Shown here: positions 13,064-46,144 of the stretch, in pieces
Position numbering within the stretch: the first letter of the stretch is position 1
Layout of the letters: every line of letters starts with the position of its first letter
NCBI GenBank assembly: GCA_900696685.1
Contig: CAADHA010000166.1
Location: 1-64,000, forward strand
Source: an uncultured Planctomycetota bacterium
Lineage (GTDB): Bacteria > Planctomycetota > Phycisphaerae > Phycisphaerales > UBA5793
DNA length: 64,000 nt
Direction of reading: 5' to 3'
Program-made: the position numbers and the translations under genes
Notes under the pieces: generated by a model
Told to the model about the DNA's origin: nothing
What the model saw: the letters and a program-made list of their open reading frames with translations, nothing else
Database searches by the model: none

Positions 13064-14269
13064 ATGGCCGGCGAGAAGGTGGTCCTGGCGTTTTCGGGCG
13101 GGCTTGACACGAGTTTCTGCGTCCCTTACCTCAAGGAAAGGGGCTACGAAGTCACCACTCTCTTCGTCGACACGGGCGGCGTGAGCAACGAGGAGAGGGC
13201 CTATATCGAGAAGCGCTCGCGCGACGTCGGCGCTGCCGATCACATCACCGTCAATGCCGCGCAGGACCTGTGGGAGGAGTTCGTCGTTCCCCTCGTGCAG
13301 TTCGGCGGCGCCTACCAGGACCAGTATCCCATGCTCTGCTCCGACCGCTACGTGATCGTGCGCAAGAGCCTCGAGCACTGCCGCAGGATCGGCACGAAGA
13401 ACTTCGCGCACGGCTGCACGGGCATGGGCAATGACCAGGTCCGCTTCGACCAGACCGTGCGCTCGCTTGGCGACTTCAACATCCTCTCGCCCATCCGCGA
13501 TATCCAGCACGAGCACCGGCAGGTGCGCGCCTACGAGCAGGCGTATCTCAAGGAACGCGGCATCGAGGTGCGCACGAGCACGAGCAAGTACTCCATCAAC
13601 GAGAACATCCTCGGCGTAACCATCAGCGGCTCGGAGATCGACCGCTACGACGCGCCGGATGACGACACGTGGAAGATGTGCGCCCATCCGAGCCGCTGGC
13701 CGCGCGAGAGGTTGCGCGTGCGCATCGGTTTTGAGAAGGGCGTGCCGGTGAGCGTGGATGGGGAGAAACTCGCCGGGCCGAAGATACTCCAGAAGTTGAA
13801 CCGGGTCTTCGGCGCGTACGGCGTCGGCAGGCACATCTATTCGAGCGACACGACCATCGGCCTCAAGGCCCGCATCGTCTTCGAGTGCCCCGGCATCGAG
13901 GCGCTCATGCACGCGCACCGCGGCCTCGAAGAGGCGATCCACACATCCTGGCAGGCGAATTTCAAGAGGCAGGCGGCGGACTGGTGGGTGCAGCTCGTCT
14001 ACAAGGGCTTCTTCTACGAGCCCCTCAAGAGCGATCTCGAAGCCGCCCTCGCCAGCTCGCAGCGCTTCGTCACCGGCGAAGTCACGCTTGAGACCTTCGG
14101 CGGATCGCTTTGCGCCGTCAAGGTCGATTCGAAGCACGTGCTTGAACGACCCGGCGCCTCCTACGCCCAGAGCGCCGACTGGACGGTGACCGAGGCGGTC
14201 GGCTTCATCAAACTCTTCGGCCAGAGTTCGACCATTTCAGCGATGATCAACCCGATTCACAAGTTGTGA
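13064..14269 (+). CDS. argG: argininosuccinate synthase
   Basis: Joins citrulline and aspartate using ATP. The PP-loop AFSGGLDTS is near residues 9-17, and substrate-binding HGCTGMGNDQVRF and TSTSKYSINENI-type segments follow. About 401 residues, as expected. The ATG at 13064 is preferred because GGAG lies seven bases before it; ATG 13052 contains that site. First gene of the arginine run argG-argE-argB-argC-argH, separated from argE by a 7-bp repeat array. Confidence 0.94.
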   Translation: MAGEKVVLAFSGGLDTSFCVPYLKERGYEVTTLFVDTGGVSNEERAYIEKRSRDVGAADHITVNAAQDLWEEFVVPLVQFGGAYQDQYPMLCSDRYVIVRKSLEHCRRIGTKNFAHGCTGMGNDQVRFDQTVRSLGDFNILSPIRDIQHEHRQVRAYEQAYLKERGIEVRTSTSKYSINENILGVTISGSEIDRYDAPDDDTWKMCAHPSRWPRERLRVRIGFEKGVPVSVDGEKLAGPKILQKLNRVFGAYGVGRHIYSSDTTIGLKARIVFECPGIEALMHAHRGLEEAIHTSWQANFKRQAADWWVQLVYKGFFYEPLKSDLEAALASSQRFVTGEVTLETFGGSLCAVKVDSKHVLERPGASYAQSADWTVTEAVGFIKLFGQSSTISAMINPIHKL

Positions 14270-40868: not shown

Positions 40869-41831
40869 TTGAACTACCTCATTGATCCAACACTGAAGCG
40901 CCTCGTGATAGACGGCTTTGCCTTTCCGCTCGGGTGGAAGCCCAGCGACGGGCAGAGGCCCTTCGAGGGCTACACCATCTCGCGACTCGACTTCGACGGG
41001 CAACTTCCCGACACGCATCAGTTCCAGATCGCGGTGTCGCACGAGCGACTCAGGCCTCTGCTGAACCGGCTCTTTGCGCTGCTGCCTGAGGACGTCTACC
41101 CGATCGTCGAGATCATCTCGACGGATGCCTACCGGCCGGTGGACACGCTGATGAGTCCGGAGCCGACCTCGCGCGCCGACTTTCTCTCCACGTGGGCCGA
41201 GGTCGAGCCTCTCCTGCTGGACGACTGCGCCCTGGCCGCAGGCGCCATGAGCGAAGAGCCCTACCTCGAGGTGTTCGTCGAGGCCAACAAGTTCGTGATC
41301 GTCAACATCGCACGGGAGCAGAGCAGCGTGCTGGAGGCTGAACTTGAGTCGGCGGGACTGCACGAGGTGCCCAGCCACTGGATCAACGACGGGGACTGCA
41401 CAGACGAGTTCACCAGCGTCCTCCTTGAGAAGGACGGGCTGATGACTCTCGACGACGTGATCGTCTACCTCCAGCGACTCTGGCGCCTCGAACTGAACGT
41501 CGATCCGGAAGGCAATCCGGATGAAGCGGGGCGCGACCTGGGCGTCACGCTCTGGCGCATCGTCGTCCTTGCCGTGCGCCGCGATCAGCAGCCGCCCGCG
41601 GACCGCGCCCGCATCGAAGTCTGGCTCTCGGCCGGCTCGCTCGGACAGGTCGAGGAACTCGTCGCGGACGTCTTCGATGAGATCAAGGACTGGGACATCG
41701 ACACGATGGTCAGCCAGGACCGCGTCGCGTTCGATGACCGTCCGCGCGAACTCAACGACCTGAAGCAGGGCTCGGGAGAGACGGGCGTCTGGGCTGTTTC
41801 GATCCAGCCTCTCGAGTCCGGCACTCACTGA
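40869..41831 (+). CDS. conserved-looking protein of unknown function
   Basis: A 320-residue acidic, soluble protein with no signal or membrane segment and no motif I recognise. It begins with TTG at 40869, nine bases after the deacetylase stop, and is probably co-transcribed with it. Codon use and composition match the neighbours, supporting a real gene. The middle (about 100-190) and C-terminal (about 210-300) parts look like separate alpha/beta domains. It converges with mqnC, overlapping its end by seven bases. Confidence 0.6.
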   Translation: MNYLIDPTLKRLVIDGFAFPLGWKPSDGQRPFEGYTISRLDFDGQLPDTHQFQIAVSHERLRPLLNRLFALLPEDVYPIVEIISTDAYRPVDTLMSPEPTSRADFLSTWAEVEPLLLDDCALAAGAMSEEPYLEVFVEANKFVIVNIAREQSSVLEAELESAGLHEVPSHWINDGDCTDEFTSVLLEKDGLMTLDDVIVYLQRLWRLELNVDPEGNPDEAGRDLGVTLWRIVVLAVRRDQQPPADRARIEVWLSAGSLGQVEELVADVFDEIKDWDIDTMVSQDRVAFDDRPRELNDLKQGSGETGVWAVSIQPLESGTH

Positions 41832-43222
41832 ACCGCGAGGCGATCCTGGGCGGCCGAGAGCGTGACCTCGACGGGCGCCCGGCCGGGCGAGGCGCGCTGC
41901 ACGGCGAGTTTCCGCGCGCGCTGCCGCGACCAGTCGTTGACCCTGAGGTCGGGCGAATCCGGCCCATCGTGAACGCGCAGGAGGTTGTAGACGTTATCGC
42001 GCTGTGCCGGCAGAAAGCCGGCGTTGCGGATCAGGCGGCAGATCAGCGCCTCGGTGAGGCAATAGGTCGTGCCCGCGGCCGAGACGACGTTCTCCTCCAT
42101 CATCACGCTGCCCATGTCGCTGGCGCCGAAGTGCAGCGCCACCTGCCCGATGTGCGGGCCCATCGTCACCCAACTCGCACCGATCGAGTAGACGTTGTCC
42201 AGATACAGGCGGCTGATCGCCTGCGCGCGCAGGTAGTCCGTCGCGCCGGCCATGCGGACGACTTTGCCGAACCGGTCGCTCTCGCCAAAGGCCGCGACGA
42301 CGTCGCCTGGAAAGGGTTCGTCGCCGGCGCCGTCCCACTCGGGCAGGCGGCCCAGGGGCGTATTCTCGCGCTGGAAGGGCCAGGAGATGAAGGCCTTGAA
42401 TCGCCCGCCGCCGTCGCGCGCGAAGTCGTTGATCGAGCGATCCTGCCATTGCCGAACCAGGTCCATGTGCTGGATGCGGTCGGCGACGCCCTCGATGTGG
42501 CCGAACATCATGGTCGCGGAAGTGTCCATGCCCAGGCGGTGCGCGACGCGCATGACGGTCAGCCACTCCTCTGCCGTGGCCTTGCCCAGGCCGATGCGGC
42601 GGCGGACCGGCAGGGCGAAGATTTCCCCCCCCCCACCGGGCAGCGAATCAAGCCCCGCCATCATCAGGCGCTCGAAGACGAAGGTCAGTTTTGCTTCGAG
42701 ATCATCGCCGGGCGGATCGAAGAAACGCACAAACTCGATGAACTCCGGCGGGCTGAAGGCGTGGATGTGAACATGCGGGAAAGCCGCCTTGATCCCCGAG
42801 AGCAGATCCTCGTAGTAGGAGAGCGGCAGGTGCGGGTTCATCCCTCCCTGCATGAGGATCTGTGTGCCGCCGATCGCGACGAGTTCCGCGATCTTCCCGT
42901 TGATCTCTTCGAGGCTGAGCGTGTAGGCGTCATCCTCGTCCCCGTCGCGGCGGAAGGCGCAGAACGTGCAGCGGGCGGTGCAGACGTTCGTGTAATTGAT
43001 GTTGCGGTCAATGACGTACGTGCGGACCTGGTCGCCGTGCAGCGAGCGGCACCGCTCATCGGCCCATCGGCCGAGCGTGAACAGCGGCACGGTGTGGTAC
43101 ATCCGCAGCGCCGTCTCGGCGTCAAGGCGGACCTCCCCGGTCACGAGCGCTTCCAGCCACGCGGGGTCGAAGCCGCAGCAGTCGCCCGTCAGGTCGTGTC
43201 CGATTGAGCATTGGTCAAACAT
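41825..43222 (-). CDS. mqnC: radical SAM dehypoxanthine futalosine cyclase
   Basis: Third enzyme of the futalosine menaquinone pathway, closing dehypoxanthine futalosine to the cyclic form. About 465 residues, longer than many because of an N-terminal extension. The SAM cluster motif is CTARCTFCAF within NINYTNVCTARC, and the HAFSPPEF stretch favours MqnC over MqnE. A run of glycines (LPGGGGEIF) precedes the barrel end. The ATG at 43222 is taken; an upstream extension is possible. No other mqn gene is in the window. Confidence 0.87.
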   Translation of the reverse strand: MFDQCSIGHDLTGDCCGFDPAWLEALVTGEVRLDAETALRMYHTVPLFTLGRWADERCRSLHGDQVRTYVIDRNINYTNVCTARCTFCAFRRDGDEDDAYTLSLEEINGKIAELVAIGGTQILMQGGMNPHLPLSYYEDLLSGIKAAFPHVHIHAFSPPEFIEFVRFFDPPGDDLEAKLTFVFERLMMAGLDSLPGGGGEIFALPVRRRIGLGKATAEEWLTVMRVAHRLGMDTSATMMFGHIEGVADRIQHMDLVRQWQDRSINDFARDGGGRFKAFISWPFQRENTPLGRLPEWDGAGDEPFPGDVVAAFGESDRFGKVVRMAGATDYLRAQAISRLYLDNVYSIGASWVTMGPHIGQVALHFGASDMGSVMMEENVVSAAGTTYCLTEALICRLIRNAGFLPAQRDNVYNLLRVHDGPDSPDLRVNDWSRQRARKLAVQRASPGRAPVEVTLSAAQDRLAVQ

Positions 43223-43337
43223 GGTCCTGATTCCGAAGCGCACGGCCGGGCGGGGGTCAGCAACGCGGCCGATTACCCCGTGCATGAGCATATGCCCCGC
43301 TGCAACGCCGATTGGCCGCCACGTCCGAAAACGCGGT

Positions 43338-44430: not shown

Positions 44431-45072
44431 TCAGGCTGCGGCAAGTAACTGGTGCGCCGCTCGCCAGCGATGGCAGGACTCGCAGTCGCCGCATGGCGAT
44501 GCCTCTTCCGCCTGGCACCACCAGCACAGCGCGATCGGCGCGCCGCTGGCCCGGATCAGGTCCGCCACCTGCTCATCGGTGCAGTCGAGCAGTGGTGTAC
44601 GAATCTCCGGCAGCATGCCGCGCCAGATCGGGTCCATCCGCGCCAGTTGCCCCACGCATCCGACGACTTCGTGCACGGCCGCGATTCGGTCAAGATCGCG
44701 CCCGGCCTGGCAGGGCCAGATGACGCGACCGCAGCGCCACTCGGCGGCGGCGCTCAGCGCATCGAGCAGCAGGCGACCCATTGTCAGGGCGCTTTCCGCG
44801 GAGTGGAACAGCAACGAGGAGTCGCCATTGTCCGCGGAGCCAGGACCGACGACACGGTCCGTGCCGAAGTGTGCTGCCTGCCGCCGCGTTGCCGCCAGCG
44901 GCCGTGGCCGCGCTGCCTGCGCGAGCGCCGGCACCCAGAGAATAGTCTGATCCGGCCGCTCCTGAAGCGTGAGAGCGGCGAGCGAGGCGGGCGAGCCGTC
45001 GGCAATGAGGAGGCGTCGCGGTGGAAGCATGGCGTGTGCTATCGGCACGCTCCGGCGGATTGCTTTCATTTC
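44431..45072 (-). CDS. QueC-like protein with degenerate ATP loop
   Basis: About 213 residues. The C-terminal part matches the zinc-binding end of 7-cyano-7-deazaguanine synthase: a CWWC pair followed by CGDCESCHRW, the four-cysteine pattern of QueC, preceded by DEQVADLIRASGAP. At the N-terminus, where QueC has the PP-loop SGGxDS, this protein reads ADGSPAS, so pyrophosphatase-type ATP use is doubtful. It may be a diverged or repurposed QueC relative. The start is uncertain (45072 or 45030); neither has a clear ribosome site. It converges with the membrane protein gene eight bases away. Confidence 0.6.
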   Translation of the reverse strand, partial: EMKAIRRSVPIAHAMLPPRRLLIADGSPASLAALTLQERPDQTILWVPALAQAARPRPLAATRRQAAHFGTDRVVGPGSADNGDSSLLFHSAESALTMGRLLLDALSAAAEWRCGRVIWPCQAGRDLDRIAAVHEVVGCVGQLARMDPIWRGMLPEIRTPLLDCTDEQVADLIRASGAPIALCWWCQAEEASPCGDCESCHRWRAAHQLLAAA

Positions 45073-45154
45073 AGGCGTTCGCCAGTGTGGAAGTCGATGC
45101 CCCGCCGCGCAAGGATCGACCTTCATTCACCGCCTCATTCTCGAGAGAAGTTCG

Positions 45155-46144
45155 ATGAAGCATGCAAACGAACGCCGGACCGCCGTCGAAGCGGTCCTCA
45201 GCGCCTGCCGCCTCTGCCGGACAGTCCAGTCCGCGCTGATCTCCGCCGAGTCGATCGCCAAGAAGGACAAGTCGCCGGTGACCGTGGCGGACTTCGGCGC
45301 CCAGGCCGTCGTCGCAAGCCGGCTGCGGCAGGCTTTTCCGAACGACCCGCTTGTGGGCGAAGAAGATGCCGGGGCGCTGCGCGGCCGCGAGAACGCTGAA
45401 CTCCGCGGCAAAGTCGTCGCCAGTGTGCAGAGAATCGCGCCCGCCATGAGTGAAGCGGCCATTCTCGACGCCATCGATCGCGGCAACTACGAAGGCGGCG
45501 CGACCGGCCGCCACTGGACGCTCGATCCCATCGACGGCACCAAGGGCTTCCTCCGCAACGAGCAGTATGCCGTCGCCCTCGCGCTCATCGAGAACGGCAA
45601 GGTGGTGCTCGGCGTACTCGGCTGCCCGAGCCTGCCTCACGACGCCTCCAGGCCCGACGGCCCGGCGGGATGTGTCTTCATCGCCGTCGAAGGCCAGGGC
45701 GCGACGATGCGCACACTCGACGATCCGAAGGAGCGGCCCATCCGCGTCACCTCCATCACTGATCCGAGCCGGGCGAGTTTCTGCGAGTCCGTCGAATCGG
45801 CTCACTCGGCCCAGGACGACTCGGCCAAAGTCGCCGAAATGCTGGGCATCACCGTGCCCCCCTACCGCATCGACAGCCAGTGCAAGTACGCGGCCGTGGC
45901 GCGCGGCGACGCCTCCATCTACCTCCGCCTCCCGACGAAGAAGGGCTACGAAGAGAAGATCTGGGATCACGCGGCTGGGTCAATCGTCATTCGTGAAGCG
46001 GGCGGCCGCGCGACGGATGTGCGCGGCCACGACCTCGATTTCTCCCTCGGCCGAACACTGCGCAACAACCTCGGCGTGGTCGTGACCAACGGCATCCTGC
46101 ACGATCGCGTTGTGGCGGCTGTGCGCAAGGTGCTCGGCGTCTAG
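45155..46144 (+). CDS. HAL2/SAL1-type 3'(2'),5'-bisphosphate nucleotidase
   Basis: A 329-residue member of the lithium-sensitive phosphatase family (IMPase fold). It hydrolyses PAP to AMP, removing a by-product of sulfate and acyl-carrier metabolism. Metal sites are GEEDA (about residue 67), WTLDPIDGTKGFLR (about 125) and IWDHAAG (about 270). The larger size and the TKGFLR form resemble the eukaryotic HAL2 group rather than E. coli CysQ. The ATG at 45155 follows a GAGAGAAG site. Confidence 0.85.
   Translation: MKHANERRTAVEAVLSACRLCRTVQSALISAESIAKKDKSPVTVADFGAQAVVASRLRQAFPNDPLVGEEDAGALRGRENAELRGKVVASVQRIAPAMSEAAILDAIDRGNYEGGATGRHWTLDPIDGTKGFLRNEQYAVALALIENGKVVLGVLGCPSLPHDASRPDGPAGCVFIAVEGQGATMRTLDDPKERPIRVTSITDPSRASFCESVESAHSAQDDSAKVAEMLGITVPPYRIDSQCKYAAVARGDASIYLRLPTKKGYEEKIWDHAAGSIVIREAGGRATDVRGHDLDFSLGRTLRNNLGVVVTNGILHDRVVAAVRKVLGV

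What the first reader, a model, noticed from the sequence alone, without database searches (positions are those of the whole stretch)
44431..45072. QueC-like protein that has kept its zinc end but lost the PP-loop
The four-cysteine C-terminal pattern is intact, but SGGxDS is replaced by ADGSPAS, lacking the Asp and second Gly. True QueC needs this loop for ATP. The protein may have a new role, such as binding deazaguanine precursors or modified bases.
Basis: partly seen in the sequence, partly recalled or inferred. Interest (0 to 1): 0.6.

Follow-up and report, generated by a model that had tools for sequence, protein, structure and literature searches.

The report
QueC relative without its ATP loop
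This gene belongs to an apparently undescribed branch of the tRNA-modification enzyme QueC, found across one class of planctomycete bacteria, that lost the ATP-handling loop and most catalytic residues but mostly kept its zinc site, and that persists even in genomes with no other QueC, so it probably does a different, probably non-catalytic, job.

Summary
The ORF ending at 44431 (-) is a full-length QueC-fold protein (AlphaFold2 pLDDT 88; best PDB matches QueC 3BL5 and Cap9 9NTO) with the four zinc cysteines and DGSPAS in place of SGGxDS. Its start is probably 45030, not 45072.

It is no local error. It belongs to one clade (55 sequences, 100/99 support) spread over the class Phycisphaerae, in which the PP-loop Asp is lost in 55/55 (present in 23/23 QueCs). 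The window protein is a late state of stepwise erosion: SGGxNS, then SGGxRS or NGSxNS, then DGSxxS; some relatives also lost the zinc cysteines. Nearly all other residues QueC needs are gone too. dN/dS of 0.10-0.33 shows the gene is kept, loosely.

The window genome has canonical QueC, QueE and QueF. Fifteen related genomes have none of these three but keep the altered protein, which argues against queuosine synthesis and against binding deazaguanine precursors.

Best reading: a QueC-derived pseudoenzyme acting as a binding or regulatory protein, partner unknown. The 2026 survey of QueC clusters does not describe it.

The parts
44431..45030 (-). QueC-like gene without a PP-loop Asp (199 aa plus stop), most likely extent
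   Evidence: ORF; start by conservation; QueC fold
45031..45126 (-). in-frame upstream extension of the ORF (ATGs at 45126 and 45069), probably not translated
   Evidence: not available as an ORF extension in congeners G003 and G001
44983..45000 (-). remnant of the PP-loop: DGSPAS in place of SGGxDS
   Evidence: alignment
44566..44598 (-). TPLLDCTDEQV segment: Asp where QueC has its conserved Lys, and the Gln (44569-44571) that is invariant in the 43 derived members
44473..44517 (-). zinc site C-x7-C-x2-C-x2-C
45158..46144 (+). divergent neighbour, 3'(2'),5'-bisphosphate nucleotidase (HAL2 type), next to the gene in families f1 and f5
   Evidence: TIGR01330 380 bits; synteny

Best explanation
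The gene encodes a QueC-derived protein that no longer does QueC chemistry. A relative of the type-B QueCs (short C-x7-C zinc loop) gave rise once, early in the Phycisphaerae, to a lineage that lost the PP-loop Asp, then the residues of the substrate pocket, then in some branches the first Ser and second Gly of the loop, and in part of one family the zinc site (shown by alignment and tree). Because the Asp of the pyrophosphate-binding motif and nearly all residues shown to be essential in E. coli QueC are gone, it should neither activate CDG with ATP nor make preQ0 (inferred). It is retained under purifying selection as a compact PP-ATPase-fold scaffold whose old pocket carries a different conserved set (an Arg, Asp, Glu/Asp, Asp and an invariant Gln). 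The likely role is a non-catalytic binding or regulatory protein for a phosphate-bearing ligand or a protein partner (inferred). The role does not depend on 7-deazaguanine synthesis, because genomes without QueC, QueE and QueF keep it (shown for 15 genomes).
For: Asp lost 55/55 against 0/23 in QueC, with RN of VPxRN, the YPDC Cys, the Lys and almost always the Tyr after Cys1 also lost. One clade, 100/99. QueC fold. dN/dS 0.10-0.33. Retained in 15 genomes without QueC, QueE and QueF. Canonical QueC present beside it in the window genome. Essentiality of Tyr35, Arg99, Tyr131 and Tyr189 in E. coli QueC: PMC13329287; role of the motif Asp: PMC13279940.
Against: No ligand, partner or common operon is known; neighbours change with the lineage. 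Basal members keep SGG and the last Ser and might still bind ATP. Conserved polar residues in the old pocket could equally serve a new catalytic activity. No activity was measured.
Confidence: 0.55

Rival explanations
1. It is an enzyme with new, perhaps ATP- or Mg-independent, chemistry: the altered loop (SGGxNS, SGGxRS) still binds a phosphate, and the rebuilt pocket catalyses a different reaction.
For: SGG and the final Ser survive in basal and f6 members, and Arg can bind phosphate; a new conserved residue set lies at old pocket positions; conserved neighbours are enzymes: PF00117 amidotransferase, HAL2, MDR dehydrogenase, PgeF.
Against: The window lineage and f2 also lost the first Ser and second Gly, and some f2 members the zinc site, yet the gene stays; few residues are invariant across the whole clade; no neighbour is shared by all.
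Confidence: 0.27
2. It binds deazaguanine precursors or modified bases, for instance as a partner or regulator of canonical QueC.
For: QueC ancestry; canonical QueC co-occurs in the window genome and in most carriers within the order.
Against: Residues around the substrate are lost; 15 genomes keep the protein without QueC, QueE or QueF; no que genes among its neighbours. Salvaged deazaguanines remain possible, since TGT is present.
Confidence: 0.1
3. It is a decaying gene on its way to loss.
For: Fast evolution (54-63% identity within the genus against 84-88% for HAL2), stepwise motif loss, absence from most f3 genomes.
Against: One clade kept open across a class, dN/dS below 0.35, new invariant residues.
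Confidence: 0.05
4. In families without another QueC the D-less protein works as their QueC.
For: It is the sole full-length QueC homologue there, at 89-150 Pfam bits, with TGT and a QueD-like PTPS present.
Against: QueE and QueF are missing too, so no source of CDG is known; RN, the YPDC Cys, the Lys and mostly the Tyr after Cys1 are gone.
Confidence: 0.03

Closest known systems
[quoted passage not shown] 3BL5, 2PG3)
   Same: Fold, length, C-terminal zinc site; common ancestry with the type-B QueCs
   Different: PP-loop Asp and nearly all other catalytic residues lost; kept in genomes without QueE and QueF
Cap9 of type IV CBASS (9NTO)
   Same: QueC scaffold of about 190-200 aa with a C-x7-C zinc site; best PDB match by sequence
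   Different: Cap9 keeps SGGxDS and YxDC (PMC13329287); here both are lost, and no CD-NTase is among the identified neighbours
QatC of qatABCD
   Same: QueC-derived protein with another role
   Different: QatC is about 400 aa, keeps SGGxDS and binds ATP (PMC13279940); the window protein does not match the QatC model
Divergent clusters of the 2026 PF06508 survey (PMC13329287: LarE, PfkB-linked, WbpG type, GMP synthase)
   Same: QueC-superfamily scaffold reused for other jobs
   Different: The loop motif is reported as retained in the clusters analysed in detail (1-6 and 9); this clade lost it. Clusters 7, 8 and 10 are almost exclusively archaeal and were not analysed

Membership tests
Canonical QueC | QueC fold and sequence homology | tested here: met
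   Foldseek 3BL5 E 3.5e-6; profile hits to QueC phylum-wide; tree
Canonical QueC | SGGxDS pyrophosphate-binding loop | tested here: not met
   DGSPAS in the window; Asp absent in 55/55 clade members
Canonical QueC | YxQxHxxE, VPxRN and YPDC motifs and the Tyr after the first zinc Cys | tested here: not met
Canonical QueC | zinc site of four cysteines | tested here: met
   C-x7-C-x2-C-x2-C in the window protein; 50/55 of the clade
Canonical QueC | converts CDG to preQ0 with ATP | not testable with these tools
   needs complementation or an in vitro assay
Cap9 / type IV CBASS | SGGxDS and YxDC kept, CD-NTase neighbour | tested here: not met
   motifs absent; PADLOC gives only the generic QueC model; no CD-NTase among the identified neighbours
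QatC / qatABCD | about 400 aa, SGGxDS, qatA/B/D neighbours | tested here: not met
   199 aa, no loop, no PADLOC QatC match for the window protein

The most novel reading that the evidence does not exclude
A class-wide, single-origin branch of the QueC superfamily has become a PP-ATPase-fold protein without a working PP-loop, with a function (regulator, adaptor, or enzyme of new chemistry) unrelated to 7-deazaguanine, and is kept by bacteria that lack the queuosine synthesis genes.
Probability: 0.7. Interest if true: 0.6.

Novelty: new variant of a known kind. Interest (0 to 1): 0.5.

Why it matters
QueC relatives have recently turned out to modify proteins in phage defence, but the clusters analysed so far keep the ATP loop. 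This clade shows another route: the scaffold outlives its chemistry, through a readable series of intermediates (SGGxDS, SGGxNS, SGGxRS or NGSxNS, DGSxxS, with zinc loss in places). Genomes without QueC, QueE and QueF make the question of a deazaguanine-independent role directly testable. It also warns that annotation from the C-terminal zinc motif alone would call these genes queC wrongly.

Tried and rejected
Family alignment as a query for named genomes (too divergent); a genus-level alignment gave names for three relatives. The second PF06508 hit in the window, at 13076, is argininosuccinate synthase, another PP-loop family. Defence-system link: only a generic QueC model in PADLOC. A common operon partner: none; neighbours change with the lineage. 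The high-scoring G414 hit in another class is a canonical QueC beside queD and queE. A first tree without intermediates had a stem of 2.05 and was replaced by the 78-sequence tree. Local sequencing or assembly error: excluded by congeners with the same state.

Full report
What is there. On the - strand of the window an ORF ending at 44431 encodes a protein of at most 231 aa. Congeners at 54-63% identity share an ATG at the place that corresponds to 45030, and in two of them no other upstream ATG is available, so the protein is most likely 199 aa, MLPPRRLLIADGSPASLAAL....

Observation. Pfam QueC recognises only the C-terminal 52 residues (25.4 bits), and the QueC equivalog model scores 20.8 bits against a cut-off of 150. 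The four cysteines are present (C-x7-C-x2-C-x2-C), and SGGxDS reads DGSPAS. The protein is nevertheless a full QueC relative. A profile of its family finds canonical QueC throughout the phylum, in the window's own genome over model positions 5-202. An AlphaFold2 model built on 25 relatives has pLDDT 88 and pTM 0.86; its best PDB matches are B. subtilis QueC 3BL5 (E 3.5e-6) and Cap9 9NTO.

Not a local error, not the only queC. The window's genome encodes two canonical QueCs with all motifs (contigs C20 and C47); one sits on a 3.7-kb contig and may be contamination. QueF, QueE, TGT and PTPS proteins are also present. Of 61 genomes searched 38 encode a homologue. The lineage is Phycisphaerales, Planctomycetota: the contig of the congener G001 has the same length as a contig of Phycisphaerales bacterium UBA5793, which the sequence search returned.

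A class-wide clade. A search of 248 genomes of the class (Phycisphaerae, by the taxonomy of UBA5793) found intermediate relatives in other families. Aligned with 23 canonical QueCs, all 55 members examined lack the PP-loop Asp, which is present in 23/23 QueCs. In the basal families f103, f111, f112 and f117 the loop is mostly SGGxNS; f104 has SGGxRS or SGGxHS; f106 mostly NGSxNS; within the order it is SGGxRS (mainly f5 and f6) or DGSxxS and the like (f1, f2). Family numbers are the tool's own anonymous labels. Tyr and Asp of YPDC and the Glu of YxQxHxxE survive in part of the basal members only. The RN pair of VPxRN, the YPDC Cys, the conserved Lys and, nearly always, the Tyr after the first zinc Cys are lost. 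The zinc cysteines stay in 12/12 basal, 12/13 f104/f106 and 26/30 order members; four f2 sequences lost all of them. Mutants of E. coli QueC at Tyr35, Arg99, Tyr131 and Tyr189 are inactive (PMC13329287), and in QatC the Asp of the loop belongs to the motif that coordinates the ATP phosphates (PMC13279940).

Origin. A maximum-likelihood tree of 78 sequences puts all D-less proteins in one clade (100/99), sister to the type-B QueCs with the short zinc loop, including those of families f110 and f102 of the same class, and away from the type-A QueC that the order uses. Some end branches of f2 and f3 are long, so fine branching there is unsure.

Selection. Nei-Gojobori dN/dS is 0.10-0.33 in the QueC-like gene against 0.05-0.16 in the neighbouring HAL2 gene. 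dS is often above 1, so the figures are rough, but they indicate constraint, weaker than in the neighbour. Derived members share new conserved residues, above all a Gln two residues after the lost Lys (43/43).

Independence from queuosine synthesis. Thirty genomes were checked. Eleven f103 genomes (two of one contig) and four f112 genomes have the D-less protein as their only full-length QueC homologue (other PF06508 hits there are short, mostly N-terminal matches in longer frames), no QueF above the cut-off, and no QueE by two searches, only weak radical-SAM-type hits of 20-25 bits. They do have TGT and PTPS, which would fit salvage of a queuine precursor (inference). Most other D-less carriers in the set have canonical QueC and QueF as well; the exceptions, G490 and G541, are about 80% complete. 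The protein is therefore kept whether or not CDG can be made.

Neighbours. In f103, f104, f106 and f117 the gene tends to follow members of a cluster of murI, a HEAT-repeat lipoprotein, an MDR alcohol dehydrogenase and PgeF/YfiH (PgeF named from Cu-oxidase_4 and my own knowledge). In f1 and f5 it is divergent to HAL2; in ten genomes of f6 to a PF00117 glutamine amidotransferase; in f2 it lies between an S41 C-terminal-processing protease and rplU. No arrangement is universal, and none of those identified contains que genes.

Interpretation. Shown: homology, predicted fold, motif loss, single origin, retention, and independence from QueE, QueC and QueF. Inferred: absence of QueC chemistry, and a non-catalytic binding or regulatory role; the ligand or partner is unknown. 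A new enzymatic activity is the main rival. The QueC network survey of 2026 describes its clusters 1-6 and 9 as retaining the loop and found 7, 8 and 10 almost exclusively archaeal. A text search found no paper naming QueC together with pseudoenzyme or with Phycisphaerae; only open-licence papers could be searched, so an earlier description elsewhere is not excluded.

Noticed in passing
L113, L123, L126, L127, L135 (families f110 and f102): These relatives have an intact type-B QueC; in the two genomes checked (G430, G450) QueE, a QueD-like protein and TGT are present but no QueF was found, so how or whether preQ0 is reduced there is unclear.
   Followed up: no
L169, L170, L172, L174, L179, L182, L185: Recurrent gene order murI, HEAT lipoprotein, MDR dehydrogenase, PgeF/YfiH, QueC-like (not all genes in each) in other families of the class.
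   Followed up: partly
L048 8767-9495, L050 10976-11671, L053 10823-11584, L068 2297-3091 and others: A PF00117 glutamine amidotransferase is divergent to the QueC-like gene in ten genomes of family f6.
   Followed up: partly
L001 and L002 (window genome, contigs C20 and C47): Two canonical queC genes in the window's assembly; the one on the 3.7-kb contig C20 may be contamination (assembly contamination 4.23%).
   Followed up: no
window 41825-43291 (-): MqnC-like radical SAM protein matched in two stretches and below the MqnC cut-off (402 against 428 bits), hinting at an insertion.
   Followed up: no
G000:C86:17195-18328 (window genome): TGT is matched in two pieces within one 538-codon frame with about 28 extra codons between them.
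   Followed up: no
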